Source: Gordonia sp. SID5947 (GTDB lineage: Bacteria; Actinomycetota; Actinomycetes; Mycobacteriales; Mycobacteriaceae). From it: a stretch of DNA of 64,000 bases. Under the pieces are notes generated by a model. That model saw only the letters and a list, made by a program, of their open reading frames with translations. It had not been told where the DNA came from and searched no databases. Positions 47,475 through 50,674 of the stretch are shown piece after piece; position 1 is the stretch's first letter, and each line of letters starts with the position of its first letter. The DNA lies in assembly GCF_009862785.1 (NCBI RefSeq), contig NZ_WWHU01000001.1, forward strand, positions 2,542,001-2,606,000, written 5' to 3'. The position numbers were made by a program, and so were the translations under genes.

Positions 47475-47666
47475 TCAGCGGTCACTCCGCGGCCGACCGA
47501 AGTGGCACCCGACATCGATGTCTTCGATGAGCCGGGGACTCGGGTTTCCGGTCCAGAAATCCGGCGAGAGATCCGGCCAGAGGTATGCAGCGCCCTCCTG
47601 CATGGCGACCGCGCTCGACCACGCAGCGCGAAGCGGCCGGGCGGTAAGCCAGAGGTCACGGGCCAT
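47475..47666 (-). CDS. Possible 63-residue protein divergent from the MMPL gene
   Basis: An open frame from ATG 47666 with AAGG just upstream; about three quarters of its third codon positions are G or C. The product starts MARDLWLTARPL and contains no recognised domain. Its start lies only 15 bases from the first CstR-type operator, whereas the second operator is close to the MMPL gene, which suggests two divergent regulated promoters. The rest of the 372-bp gap (47377-47748) holds only the operators and the TetR inverted repeat. Confidence 0.35.
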   Translation of the reverse strand: MARDLWLTARPLRAAWSSAVAMQEGAAYLWPDLSPDFWTGNPSPRLIEDIDVGCHFGRPRSDR

Positions 47667-47680
47667 ACCTTGCCGTCTAT

Positions 47681-47696
47681 ATACCCCGTGGGGTAT
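47681..47696. promoter_or_regulatory. CstR/CsoR-type operator 1
   Basis: ATACCCC-GT-GGGGTAT, a perfect inverted repeat of the form bound by CsoR-family repressors. It lies 15 bases upstream of the small minus-strand frame. Confidence 0.8.
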
Positions 47697-47716
47697 TGTT
47701 CCGCTCACGAGATTCG

Positions 47717-47732
47717 ATACCCCCTGGGGTAT
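47717..47732. promoter_or_regulatory. CstR/CsoR-type operator 2, before the MMPL gene
   Basis: ATACCCC-CT-GGGGTAT, the same 7-2-7 palindrome, ending 16 bases before the MMPL start codon and so overlapping its promoter or leader. Confidence 0.85.
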
Positions 47733-47748
47733 ATGGGAGGGCAAGGTT

Positions 47749-49893
47749 GTGACAACTACCGCACACGCAGAGGAGAGAGCCGACCGGAGTCGGCCGGGCC
47801 GCCTCGGATGGCTCGGCAACTGGACCGCGACCCATCGACGCTGGGTGTTCGCGACCTGGACACTGCTCGTGATCTGCCTCGGCGCCGTGGCACCGTCGGT
47901 GTTCGATTCCCTGGCCGGCGCGGGCTGGCAGGCCAACGGCTCAGAGTCAGTGGCGGTGCGCGACCTCGCGCAGGAGCACTTCGGCGGGAGCTCCTCCGCC
48001 GCCGTGCAGGTGGTGATCCACGCGGATTCCCAACAGATCTCCAGCCCCGAGGTGCAACAGACGATCGACGAGATCACCCGCCTCGCCGCGTCGGACAACC
48101 GGTTCGGCGACGTCGTCCCACCGCAACAGGGGATGACGATCAGCCAAGACGGGCACACCGGAATCGTCCTGGTCGGCGCCGCGGGCACGGCCGACGACAT
48201 GGTGAAGGCGGTCGACGATCACAAGAACGATCTGACCGCCTTGTCCGGCAACGGAATCGACGTCTATCCGACCGGCGCGTCTGCGTTGTGGAGCGACTTC
48301 AACAAGGCCAATCACGAGGCCATGATCAAGGCCGAGATGGTCTCGTGGCCGATCACGCTGGCGATCATGGTGATCGCGTTCGGATCATTGGTGGCCGCGG
48401 GTCTTCCGCTGCTGTTGACCATCGCCGGTCTCGTGGCCTCTGCCGGCGCACTCGTGGTGCTCAACATGGTCACGCCGATTTCGGTGTGGGCCATGAACTT
48501 TGCCATGATGTTCGCGCTCGCACTCGGCATCGACTACGCCCTGTTCGTCGTGTCGCGCTTCAGGGCCGCGCTGGCCGAACGCACTGATCCGGTCGCCGCC
48601 ACCGCAGAGACGATGGACACCGCGGGCAAGGCCGTCCTGCTGTCCGGCCTCACTGTTCTGGTGAGCCTGTCCGCTGTCCTCTTGGTGCCCGCCCCGGCAG
48701 TACGGACGATGGCAGTAGGCATCATGGTGGCAGTGGTCTTCGTCCTGGCCGCAACCATGACGTTGTTGCCCGCAGCGCTCGGCGCTCTCGGCACCAGAGT
48801 CAACGCAGTCTCGTTGCCCTGGGCGAAACGCCAGAAACATCGGTCGCCGACGTTCGCCGCATGGGGCAACCTGCTGCATCGCCATCCGTGGCCGTTCGCG
48901 CTCGCCTCGCTCGCGATCCTGATCGCGTTGGCGTTGCCGGTCATCGGGATCAAGGTCGCCATGCCCTCGATCAGCGTGGTGCCCGAGGACGCACCGGTCC
49001 GCCAGGGCTATGAGGTCGTCCAGGAGTCGATGGGCGAAGGCGCGCCCGGCGCCCTGCAGATCGTTGTCCCGCAGGCACAGGCGGACCAAACCTCGGCCGC
49101 CGCATCGACGGTACCGGGTGTCGCCGCGGTCACTCCCCCGCAACCGGCTGCCGACGATTCGGGATACGCAATGCTGCAGGCGATTCCGGACGTCGATCCA
49201 TCCGATCCACTGATGAACGACATCGTTGCGGATCTGCGCGGATCACTGCCGGCCGACGCGCTCGTCGGCGGCGCACCCGCCGAGAACATCGATCTTCAGC
49301 AAGCCTTGAACGATTGGTTCCCCATCGTGGTCGCAGTGATCCTCACCCTCGGATTCCTGCTGCTGTTGATCGCACTGCAAGCGCCGTTGATCGCGCTACT
49401 GGGTACGGTGGTGAGCCTGCTGTCCACCGCCGCCGCATTCGGGGTCGCGCGCCTGATCTTCCAGGACGGTCACGGGTCCGGGCTGCTCGGCTTCCAAGCG
49501 CAGGGCTTCCTGGACGGCTGGGGTCCGGTGTTCTTCTTCGCGATGATCTTCGCGATCGCGATGGACTACACCGTCTTCCTGCTCGCGACGGCGAAGGAGC
49601 ACTACGAACGCTCGAACGACCCGAAGGTAGCGCACATCGACGGGCTCGCCCACTCCGGGCGGATCATCTTCGCTGCCGCAGCCGTGATGGTCGCAGTGTT
49701 CTTCACCTTCGCGCTCGCACAGCCGTTGCCACCGAAGGAGATGGGCATCATCCTGGGCGTCGCCGTCCTGTTGGACGCCACGCTGATCCGATTGGTGCTA
49801 CTGCCCGTCCTGCTACGACTCACCGGCCACGGCGCGTGGTGGAGTCCGGCATGGCTGCGCCGCATCCTTCCCGCGATCTCCTTCGGTCACTGA
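47749..49893 (+). CDS. MMPL/RND-family transporter in a CstR-type regulon
   Basis: A 714-residue inner-membrane transporter with two MMPL modules. Helix 1 is at about residues 35-55, followed by a large outer loop (about 60-185), helices 2-6, a second outer loop (about 400-530) and helices 8-12. Typical MMPL sequences are MFALALGIDYALFVVSRFRAAL and FFFAMIFAIAMDYTVFLLATAKEHY, whose Asp-Tyr pairs form the proton relay. The GTG at 47749 follows GGGAGGGCAAGG. Operator 2 lies at its promoter, and a CstR-like gene with its own operator follows. A substrate linked to sulfur or lipid stress is inferred only from that control. Confidence 0.88.
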   Translation: MTTTAHAEERADRSRPGRLGWLGNWTATHRRWVFATWTLLVICLGAVAPSVFDSLAGAGWQANGSESVAVRDLAQEHFGGSSSAAVQVVIHADSQQISSPEVQQTIDEITRLAASDNRFGDVVPPQQGMTISQDGHTGIVLVGAAGTADDMVKAVDDHKNDLTALSGNGIDVYPTGASALWSDFNKANHEAMIKAEMVSWPITLAIMVIAFGSLVAAGLPLLLTIAGLVASAGALVVLNMVTPISVWAMNFAMMFALALGIDYALFVVSRFRAALAERTDPVAATAETMDTAGKAVLLSGLTVLVSLSAVLLVPAPAVRTMAVGIMVAVVFVLAATMTLLPAALGALGTRVNAVSLPWAKRQKHRSPTFAAWGNLLHRHPWPFALASLAILIALALPVIGIKVAMPSISVVPEDAPVRQGYEVVQESMGEGAPGALQIVVPQAQADQTSAAASTVPGVAAVTPPQPAADDSGYAMLQAIPDVDPSDPLMNDIVADLRGSLPADALVGGAPAENIDLQQALNDWFPIVVAVILTLGFLLLLIALQAPLIALLGTVVSLLSTAAAFGVARLIFQDGHGSGLLGFQAQGFLDGWGPVFFFAMIFAIAMDYTVFLLATAKEHYERSNDPKVAHIDGLAHSGRIIFAAAAVMVAVFFTFALAQPLPPKEMGIILGVAVLLDATLIRLVLLPVLLRLTGHGAWWSPAWLRRILPAISFGH

Positions 49894-49902
49894 CGACGAC
49901 AC

Positions 49903-49918
49903 ATACCCCAAGGGGTAT
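49903..49918. promoter_or_regulatory. CstR/CsoR-type operator 3, before the cstR-like gene
   Basis: ATACCCC-AA-GGGGTAT, the third copy of the 7-2-7 palindrome, 38 bases before the regulator start and 10 bases after the MMPL stop. This implies autoregulation of the regulator-DUF302 pair. Confidence 0.85.
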
Positions 49919-49956
49919 ACAATGGGTCAGACAACCGCACCGAAAGAAGGACCGGC

Positions 49957-50226
49957 ATGGTAGGCGATGAAGAGTCGATCACCGTGGTACTCAACAGATT
50001 GCGTCGCGCCCACGGGCAGCTCGCCGGAGTCATCACGATGATCGAGCAGGGCCGCGACTGCAAGGACGTCGTCACCCAACTGGCGGCGGTCTCACGCGCG
50101 CTGGACAGGGCAGGCTTCAAGATCGTGGCAACCGGCCTGCGCGAATGCCTCACCGGCGAGCAGGCCGAGAACACCGAGCCGATGACCGAGGAGCAGCTCG
50201 AGAAGCTCTTCCTCGCCCTCGCATGA
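49957..50226 (+). CDS. CsoR/RcnR-family repressor, CstR-like persulfide sensor
   Basis: An 89-residue DUF156 helical repressor. The metal ligands of copper-sensing CsoR are Cys-His-Cys; here the two cysteines are kept (Cys35 in GRDCKDV, Cys64 in LRECL) but the His position, four before the second Cys, is Gly60. The two-cysteine pattern without His matches CstR, which senses persulfides or polysulfides by cross-linking its cysteines. AAGAAGGACC precedes the ATG. Three matching operators lie at the MMPL and own promoters. A DUF302 gene follows 52 bases downstream. Confidence 0.85.
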   Translation: MVGDEESITVVLNRLRRAHGQLAGVITMIEQGRDCKDVVTQLAAVSRALDRAGFKIVATGLRECLTGEQAENTEPMTEEQLEKLFLALA

Positions 50227-50278
50227 CCACTCGATTCAACCCGTCACCGATGACCACGACGCACAGGAGATGAGACCG

Positions 50279-50674
50279 ATGCAGCTCGCCTACGCCACCA
50301 CATTGCAGACCACGTTCGACGACGCCGTGGCACGCACGCGAGAAGCGCTGTCCGAGCAGGGCTTCGGCGTGCTCACCGAGATCGACGTGACGGCGACACT
50401 TAAGCAGAAACTCGACCAGGACATGGAGAACTACTTGATCCTGGGCGCCTGCAACCCTCCGTTGGCCCACGGCGCACTCGACGTCGATCGGCAGATCGGG
50501 CTGCTGCTGCCGTGCAATGTCGTCGTCCGCGACGACACCGCCACTGCGGGGAACGTGATCGTCGAGGCGATGAACCCGGACATCATGGTCACCGTCACCG
50601 ATGCGCCGGGCCTTCGGGACGTTGCGGCCGCCGCGTCCGAGAAACTGCAGGCCGCCATCGCGGCGCTGTCCTGA
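50279..50674 (+). CDS. DUF302 protein
   Basis: A 131-residue DUF302 protein (TTLQTTFDDAVARTREALSEQGFGVLTEIDV; ILGACNPPLAHGALD; LLPCNVVVRDD). The GACNP and LLPCN cysteines are conserved in this family. DUF302 genes often sit beside CsoR-family or sulfur-handling genes; biochemical function is unproven. AGGAGATGAGACCG precedes the ATG at 50279. Together with the regulator and the MMPL gene it makes up the CstR-type regulon. Confidence 0.85.
   Translation: MQLAYATTLQTTFDDAVARTREALSEQGFGVLTEIDVTATLKQKLDQDMENYLILGACNPPLAHGALDVDRQIGLLLPCNVVVRDDTATAGNVIVEAMNPDIMVTVTDAPGLRDVAAAASEKLQAAIAALS

What the first reader, a model, noticed from the sequence alone, without database searches (positions are those of the whole stretch)
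47475..50674. CstR-like (persulfide-sensor) regulon with an MMPL transporter, DUF302 and a divergent small gene
Three palindromes of the exact form ATACCCC-NN-GGGGTAT (47681, 47717, 49903) link an MMPL transporter, a CsoR-family repressor that lacks the copper-binding His (Gly60) but keeps Cys35 and Cys64, and a DUF302 protein. Classic CstR regulons contain sulfur-oxidation enzymes; an MMPL transporter as main target is unusual. The two closely spaced operators in the divergent gap suggest that a 63-residue minus-strand frame is also regulated. This may be a sulfide/persulfide or related thiol-stress export system.
Basis: partly seen in the sequence, partly recalled or inferred. Interest (0 to 1): 0.72.

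Follow-up and report, generated by a model that had tools for sequence, protein, structure and literature searches.

The report
Persulfide-sensor-controlled MMPL pump and DUF302 module
In this actinobacterium a repressor of the kind that senses reactive sulfur appears to control only two other genes, a membrane pump and a small two-cysteine protein, and relatives of this pump lie beside sulfur-detoxification genes in other actinobacteria, which points to an untested pump in the defence against reactive sulfur.

Summary
The three operators are exact and are the only exact copies in the 5.1-Mb Gordonia-type genome: two precede an MMPL transporter, one precedes cstR-DUF302. The regulator keeps Cys35 and Cys64, with Gly where copper CsoR has His; the genome's other CsoR-family protein has the copper pattern.
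The sulfur reading rests on context, not assay. Close relatives of the regulator sit, between them, with dioxygenase-rhodanese fusions, TauE, rhodanese, YgaP-TM, DUF302 and this MMPL. In 59 Gordonia-group genomes 33 of 36 MMPL orthologues lie within 3 kb of a CstR-type gene. Class-wide, 26 of 26 fetched loci have a sulfur-module partner, against 0 of 20 MMPL paralogues. The operator and its paired layout match those published for the sulfane-sulfur sensor ScCsoR (PMC7533328).
Only 3 of 59 Gordonia-group genomes carry the dioxygenase-rhodanese fusion; here the predicted regulon is pump plus DUF302. The divergent 63-residue gene is not supported. Inducer and MMPL substrate are untested. Verdict: new variant of the CstR regulon.

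The parts
47681..47696 (.). operator 1, ATACCCC-GT-GGGGTAT, upstream of MMPL
   Evidence: paired site conserved in relatives
47717..47732 (.). operator 2, ATACCCC-CT-GGGGTAT, 36 bp from operator 1, just before the MMPL start
47749..49893 (+). MMPL/RND-type transporter, 714 aa, GTG start
   Evidence: D262-Y263 and D606-Y607 in 85 of 85 aligned relatives, no conserved Cys
49903..49918 (.). operator 3, ATACCCC-AA-GGGGTAT, upstream of cstR
   Evidence: overlaps one promoter-like match 49896-49923 (1 found, 0.5 expected)
49957..50226 (+). CstR-type DUF156/CsoR-family repressor, 89 aa, Cys35/Gly60/Cys64
50279..50674 (+). DUF302 protein, 131 aa from the likelier start (134 aa from 50270), Cys61 and Cys82 (numbering of the 134-aa form)
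47475..47666 (-).
46783..47376 (-). TetR-family regulator, recurrent neighbour of cstR-DUF302 in Gordonia; not shown to belong to the regulon
   Evidence: 10 of 11 named Gordonia loci

Best explanation
This is a compact CstR regulon. The DUF156 repressor (Cys35/Cys64, no copper His) sits on three ATACCCC-NN-GGGGTAT sites and shuts off two promoters: one for MMPL, with two sites, and one for cstR-DUF302. When sulfane sulfur (persulfide or polysulfide) rises, Cys35 and Cys64 are modified, the repressor leaves DNA, and the cell makes an H+-driven MMPL transporter plus DUF302. DUF302, with two invariant cysteines and a solved fold, most likely carries or reduces sulfane sulfur in the cytoplasm. 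The MMPL moves a reactive-sulfur-derived, probably hydrophobic, species or an envelope lipid out of the inner membrane. Shown here by sequence: sites, genes, cysteine pattern, conserved linkage, no dioxygenase-rhodanese fusion found in the genome. Inferred: repression, the inducer, DUF302 chemistry. Least certain: the MMPL substrate.
For: Exact sites found only here in the genome. C35 and C64 in 116 of 116 regulator loci of >=60% identity; residue 60 is Gly in 113 and Ser in 3, never His (some loci are one contig fetched twice). At least two sites (<=2 mismatches) close before MMPL in 26 of 26 genus orthologues of >=69% identity. 33 of 36 genus orthologues of >=60% lie within 3 kb of a CstR-type gene. 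Class-wide 26 of 26 fetched loci have a sulfur-module partner; control 0 of 20 paralogues of 30-37% identity. Relatives carry dioxygenase-rhodanese, rhodanese, TauE and YgaP-TM genes in the same cluster: of 80 named loci DUF302 in 55, dioxygenase-rhodanese 31, TauE 29, MMPL 27. Sites with <=1 mismatch in these 80 loci: 157, against 0 and 0 in two shuffles. ScCsoR binds ATACCn6GGTAT at two sites and is released by polysulfide; Cys37 is persulfidated (PMC7533328, passages and sections 9 and 11). MMPL, CstR and DUF302 distances covary (r 0.85-0.91, 0 of 2000 permutations). DUF302 is reported in sox clusters (PMC5037610, passages) and in an Arthrobacter CsoR/sulfur dioxygenase plasmid module (PMC6305408, passages).
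Against: No binding, induction or transport data. The strain's own genome shows no dioxygenase-rhodanese fusion and no YgaP-TM, so its inducer cannot be read from its own regulon. Three of 36 genus MMPL orthologues have no CstR within 3 kb; one of them, L160, has no partner at all. None of the four genus loci of 60-61% identity examined, and only 5 of 26 class-wide loci, has this operator at <=1 mismatch. Among named loci 5 of 27 MMPL genes have no site in the 450 bp upstream, four of these in Rhodococcus/Antrihabitans. 14 of 42 genus genomes with the close regulator (>=66%) have no MMPL of >=60%. Some class-wide partners are weak or single (L165, a 35% fusion fragment; L187, a 22-residue CstR match at a contig end; L184 and L186, YgaP-TM only). 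The covariation may reflect shared descent. MMPL's nearest solved relatives are lipid and siderophore exporters, which do not point to sulfur.
Confidence: 0.7

Rival explanations
1. Copper-responsive CsoR module: the repressor senses Cu(I), and MMPL with DUF302 handles copper.
For: Same DUF156 family; operator type shared with copper sensors (PMC7533328 likens its site to those of G. thermodenitrificans CsoR and M. tuberculosis RicR). An MMPL locus (TbD1, mmpS6-mmpL6) affects CsoR- and RicR-regulated genes in M. bovis (PMC9048740, passages). Several of the six plasmid relatives that I opened lie near metal genes: CopC in L010, a heavy-metal-associated protein in L011, cadmium and arsenic genes in L012, alkylmercury lyase in L009.
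Against: No His at residue 60 in any of 116 regulator loci. The genome's other CsoR-family protein has the Cys-His-Cys pattern and, by eye, a CopZ-like neighbour. Partners are sulfur genes. NCBIfam RicR scores 41.8 bits against a cut-off of 175.
Confidence: 0.06
2. General thiol or electrophile stress module: the two cysteines respond to electrophiles or disulfide stress, and MMPL exports mycothiol conjugates or xenobiotics.
For: A gene of the Rv2466c family (PF22234, mycothiol-dependent nitroreductase) joins the module in 12 of 80 named loci and in 19 of 26 genus loci of >=69% MMPL identity. MMPL pumps can be drug exporters (recalled). FrmR is a DUF156 relative.
Against: Dioxygenase-rhodanese, TauE, rhodanese and YgaP-TM are recurrent partners. 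The actinobacterial relative with published assays that I read about responds to polysulfide (PMC7533328). FrmR model 30.3 bits against a cut-off of 133.
Confidence: 0.17
3. Within a true reactive-sulfur response (so nested in the best explanation), MMPL does not export sulfur but moves an envelope lipid that protects or repairs the cell wall.
For: Closest solved relatives by sequence are MmpL3 chains (E 2.4e-55); NCBIfam's best hit is also MmpL3; no conserved Cys in MMPL.
Against: Orthologues occur in eight families besides the window's own (names not given), so a mycolate-type lipid is not a common substrate if some of these lack mycolates (inference). Lipid-synthesis partners were not looked for.
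Confidence: 0.3
4. The paired operators serve a divergent pair: MMPL and a regulated 63-residue minus-strand gene.
For: Open frame with ATG at 47666, 14 bp from operator 1. In N. farcinica and some other Nocardia loci other genes (YgaP-TM, Rv2466c-like) do diverge from MMPL there.
Against: No homologue among about 5.8 billion proteins at the tool's sensitivity; no conservation in 13 other same-layout Gordonia-group loci, which keep the paired sites.
Confidence: 0.03

Closest known systems
ScCsoR (SCO0620) sulfane-sulfur circuit of Streptomyces coelicolor (PMC7533328, passages and sections 9 and 11)
   Same: DUF156 repressor with two Cys; 16-bp site ATACC-N6-GGTAT; two sites in the target promoter; self-regulation
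   Different: ScCsoR controls PDO, TauE and rhodanese; the text holds no MMPL or DUF302. Here the targets are MMPL and DUF302, and no dioxygenase-rhodanese fusion was found in the genome.
CstR of Staphylococcus aureus and YrkD of Bacillus licheniformis
   Same: CsoR-like repressor sensing sulfane sulfur through two conserved Cys (PMC9918477, passages)
   Different: Targets there are sulfur-oxidising and sulfur-carrier genes; the passages shown name no MMPL or DUF302
SUL module of Antarctic Arthrobacter plasmids (PMC6305408, passages)
   Same: CsoR-family regulator with DUF302, TauE, rhodaneses and sulfur dioxygenase
   Different: Its transporter is MFS, not MMPL (an MMPL is named in another module, EFX)
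MmpL3/MmpL4/MmpL5 exporters
   Same: MMPL family; two Asp-Tyr pairs (their role in MmpL3 is recalled)
   Different: Shorter (714 aa), predicted to be CstR-controlled, substrate unknown
DUF302 proteins 1J3M (TT1751) and 1Q9U
   Same: Both Cys positions, in CNP and LPC motifs, are kept
   Different: Entries are named hypothetical or uncharacterized

Membership tests
CstR (persulfide-sensing CsoR family) | DUF156/CsoR-family fold | tested here: met
   PF02583 E 1.4e-23; eight CsoR-family-like PDB sequences, best E 4e-12
CstR (persulfide-sensing CsoR family) | two conserved Cys, copper His absent | tested here: met
   Cys35, Gly60, Cys64; C35 and C64 in 116 of 116 loci; His aligned to Gly60 in 4m1p
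CstR (persulfide-sensing CsoR family) | GC-tract palindromic operator before its own gene and its targets | tested here: met
   (sequence only, binding not tested); 75 of 80 named loci have a site (<=2 mismatches) within 250 bp upstream of the regulator gene
CstR (persulfide-sensing CsoR family) | regulon with rhodanese, dioxygenase or TauE | tested here: not met
   not in this locus, which holds the only exact sites; no fusion at E<=1e-40 in this genome (partial matches only); met in many relatives. A separate rhodanese or an ETHE1-type PDO elsewhere was not excluded.
CstR (persulfide-sensing CsoR family) | release from DNA by persulfide or polysulfide, not by Cu(I) | not testable with these tools
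   needs protein
CsoR (copper sensor) | Cys-His-Cys copper triad | tested here: not met
   Gly60 in place of His
FrmR (formaldehyde) | NCBIfam model over its cut-off | tested here: not met
   30.3 of 133 bits
RicR | NCBIfam model over its cut-off | tested here: not met
   41.8 of 175 bits
MMPL transporter family | PF03176 over cut-off | tested here: met
   227.9 bits, cut-off 20.5
MmpL3 (TMM exporter) equivalog | NCBIfam model over its cut-off | tested here: not met
   208.5 of 1400 bits
DUF302 | PF03625 over cut-off | tested here: met
   82.7 bits, cut-off 23

The most novel reading that the evidence does not exclude
The CstR-linked MMPL is a dedicated efflux pump for reactive sulfur (elemental sulfur, organic polysulfide or mycothiol persulfide). 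In Gordonia, where the dioxygenase-rhodanese fusion is mostly missing, export plus DUF302 stands in for oxidation: a second way to clear sulfane sulfur.
Probability: 0.3. Interest if true: 0.8.

Novelty: new variant of a known kind. Interest (0 to 1): 0.55.

Why it matters
The CstR-type circuits that I read about clear sulfane sulfur with oxidising and sulfur-transfer enzymes. Here a regulator of that kind seems to control a pump and a two-cysteine protein, and orthologues of the pump recur beside sulfur-module genes in several actinobacterial families. If the inducer is confirmed, this gives an unassigned MMPL subfamily and DUF302 a functional setting. It also makes a sharp question testable: can bacteria pump reactive sulfur out instead of oxidising it? 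Rhodococcus jostii RHA1, a laboratory strain, carries the module on a plasmid, so the test is practical.

Tried and rejected
Copper regulon: rejected on the missing His and on the separate copper-type CsoR. Divergent small gene: rejected. FrmR and RicR membership: below cut-offs. Promoter scan: one weak hit, not above chance; a TTGCCG-18-TATTGT arrangement around operator 1 is by eye only and was not reported by the scan. The search for the fusion in the own genome gave only partial MBL-fold or rhodanese matches (best E 3.8e-13); I looked at the frames of one of them (L123) and classified none by a family search. SQR was not searched. Literature: in the listings I recognised no paper that joins an MMPL to a CstR-type regulon. 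Searches listed only 20 of 95 and 20 of 32 papers, and I read passages of a few. The library holds open-licence papers only, so this is no proof of absence. The Fakhoury 2021 paper on CsoR-family persulfide sensors is not held (seen only as a reference). That PDB 7mq1-7mq3, named CsoR there, are persulfide-sensor structures is recalled and was not used as evidence.
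Full report
WHAT IS THERE. The window lies at G000:C1:2542001-2606000 of a 5.1-Mb, two-contig genome. The genus is Gordonia by inference: the named relatives of the regulator at 90-93% identity are mostly Gordonia, and a contig of an unnamed same-genus genome matches a named Gordonia contig in length (G041:C63 and NZ_RKME01000021.1, both 101,682 bases). On the plus strand stand MMPL (47749-49893), a DUF156/CsoR-family regulator (49957-50226) and DUF302 (50279 or 50270 to 50674). 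Three exact ATACCCC-NN-GGGGTAT sites lie at 47681, 47717 and 49903.

NOT CHANCE. In the window alone, a search with up to 3 mismatches finds these three sites against 0.89 expected (4 of 100 shuffles reach three). The stronger test is the genome: no other exact copy in 5.1 Mb, and two further places at two mismatches. One of these, C1:2904919, lies beside the only other CsoR-family gene. With the published looser consensus ATACC-N6-GGTAT the genome has the same three plus one GC palindrome at C1:3756926, not followed up. So the predicted regulon of this repressor is this locus.

THE REGULATOR IS CSTR-LIKE, NOT COPPER-LIKE. Cys35 and Cys64 are kept; Gly60 takes the place that aligns with a His in the copper sensor 4m1p. 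Over 116 loci with a regulator of >=60% identity (some are one contig fetched by two tools) C35 and C64 are Cys in all, and residue 60 is Gly in 113 and Ser in 3. The genome's other CsoR-family protein reads ...YC...HMNHC... and is followed by a frame that by eye is CopZ-like. NCBIfam models for RicR, FrmR and RcnR score far below their cut-offs.

WHAT KEEPS COMPANY WITH IT. The six annotated plasmid loci that I opened show the same regulator with, between them, MMPL, DUF302, YgaP-like TM, TauE, rhodanese and 'MBL fold' genes; only L007, L008 and L009 have an annotated MMPL, L012 an unannotated match. All five MBL proteins from these loci that I gave to Pfam are metallo-beta-lactamase plus rhodanese, the make-up of CstB-like persulfide dioxygenases (family name recalled). 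Among 80 named loci from one genome-contig scan (the best 80 of 477; some cut by contig ends; regulator 81-93% identical), DUF302 lies in 55, a dioxygenase-rhodanese fusion in 31, TauE in 29, a rhodanese match in 28 (partly the fusion's own domain), MMPL in 27, YgaP-TM in 17 and an Rv2466c-like protein in 12. 75 of 80 have an operator (<=2 mismatches) within 250 bp upstream of the regulator. Of the 27 MMPL genes, 22 have at least one and 18 at least two sites in the 450 bp upstream. The mix differs by genus: Mycobacteriaceae and others 26 of 35 with the fusion and none with MMPL; Nocardia 14 of 22 MMPL, no fusion; Rhodococcus with Antrihabitans 9 of 12 MMPL and 5 of 12 fusion; Gordonia 4 of 11 MMPL, no fusion (genus assigned by me from record titles).

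RECIPROCITY AND CONTROL. Starting from MMPL instead, 59 Gordonia-group genomes hold 36 orthologues of >=60% identity. 33 lie within 3 kb of a CstR-type gene (14 same direction, 19 divergent) and 3 do not (G043, G009, G010). All 26 of >=69% identity have at least two sites (<=2 mismatches) close upstream. In 394 genomes across the class, 36 genomes give 39 matches at E<=1e-150. Four of these places were already in hand, 26 were fetched as new loci and 9 were not fetched. All 26 fetched loci have at least one of CstR, DUF302, fusion, TauE, YgaP-TM, rhodanese or Rv2466c within about 1.5 kb, though a few rest on one weak match (L165, L184, L186, L187); 20 MMPL paralogues of 30-37% identity from the same genus, which I chose from the list, have none. 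The operator itself, at <=1 mismatch, is in 26 of 26 genus loci of >=69%, 0 of 4 of 60-61%, 5 of 26 class-wide loci and 0 of 20 controls. Of the four genus loci of 60-61% examined, three have partners. Seven class-wide loci carry a shifted site such as ATCCCCCCGGGGGGAT, in three of them as a pair. Distances of MMPL and CstR, MMPL and DUF302, CstR and DUF302 covary (r 0.87, 0.91, 0.85 over 63, 53 and 53 loci; 0 of 2000 permutations each), although shared species descent adds to this.

PAIRED SITES BELONG TO THE MMPL PROMOTER. Of 83 MMPL loci, 51 have two or more sites in the 450 bp upstream, 10 have one and 22 none. 46 of 53 intervals are 30-36 bp (the set has a few duplicates). ScCsoR of S. 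coelicolor has two sites at -48 and -9 of the pdo start with the 16-bp consensus ATACCn6GGTAT (PMC7533328, section 9). The pair therefore does not call for a gene on the other side. The 63-residue frame has no homologue found and no conservation.

WHAT IS MISSING. In the own genome I found no dioxygenase-rhodanese fusion (best partial match E 3.8e-13), one DUF302 only and no YgaP-TM. Across the 59 Gordonia-group genomes only 3 have the fusion at E<=1e-40 (G014, G034, G037; in G037 it lies about 2.4 kb beyond the regulator that follows MMPL), while 42 have a regulator of >=66% identity and 35 an MMPL of >=60%. 14 of the 42 have no such MMPL; in the 12 of these 14 whose locus I saw, cstR-DUF302 stands with an operator. 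So in this group the usual output of the sensor is DUF302, often with MMPL, and only rarely the fused oxidising enzyme. An ETHE1-type enzyme without rhodanese elsewhere was not excluded, and SQR was not searched.

MECHANISM. Shown by sequence: sites, gene order, cysteine pattern, conserved linkage. Supported by relatives: repression and release by sulfane sulfur, as measured for ScCsoR (passages and sections 9 and 11 of PMC7533328) and for YrkD (passages of PMC9918477). Inferred: DUF302 as a sulfur carrier or reductase. Its Cys61 and Cys82 are invariant in 91 of 91 aligned relatives and kept in 1J3M and 1Q9U. DUF302 is also reported in sox clusters of sulfur oxidisers (PMC5037610, passages) and in an Arthrobacter sulfur module (PMC6305408, passages). 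Inferred and least certain: MMPL's cargo. Its two Asp-Tyr pairs, which in MmpL3 form the proton path (recalled), are invariant in 85 of 85 and it has no conserved Cys. It is thus probably an H+-driven exporter that does no thiol chemistry itself. Candidates are hydrophobic sulfur species, mycothiol persulfide, or a protective lipid.

JUDGEMENT. A new variant of a known kind: a CstR regulon whose outputs are a pump and DUF302. Results against: no assay data, the three unlinked orthologues, the rarity of this operator form outside the close MMPL group, metal-resistance neighbours of several plasmid relatives, and the missing sulfur enzymes in this very genome. In the listings of literature I recognised no paper describing an MMPL-CstR link, within the limits told under Tried and rejected.

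Noticed in passing
50713-50754: 19-nt inverted repeat, 95% complementary with 4 nt between the arms, between DUF302 and the MarR-like gene; probably the operator of another regulator.
   Followed up: no
50773-51299 (+): The MarR-like reading frame called at 50844 looks broken near its start: by eye a frame from about 50773 continues its N-terminus. Relatives L014 and L017 hold a 90-91% match.
   Followed up: no
L044, L045, L051, L076, L080, L090, L092, L094, L099, L102, L105, L108: An Rv2466c-like protein (mycothiol-dependent nitroreductase family) joins the CstR module in 12 of 80 named loci; in the nine Nocardia loci it is on the opposite strand upstream of MMPL or of cstR. It may reduce mycothiol persulfide (inference).
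   Followed up: partly
L174, L178, L179, L180, L182, L184, L185: More distant loci use a shifted operator ATCCCCCCGGGGGGAT (or a near form), in three of the seven as a pair 31-35 bp apart, in five of the seven beside a 44-50% identical CstR-type regulator: operator and regulator may have changed together.
   Followed up: no
46783-47376 (-): A TetR regulator like this one lies near cstR-DUF302 in 10 of 11 named Gordonia loci, with or without MMPL, as if MMPL were gained or lost between the two.
   Followed up: partly
G000:C1:3756926-3756941 (L208): A fourth match to ATACC-N6-GGTAT, with a GC core unlike the CstR sites; neighbours not read.
   Followed up: no
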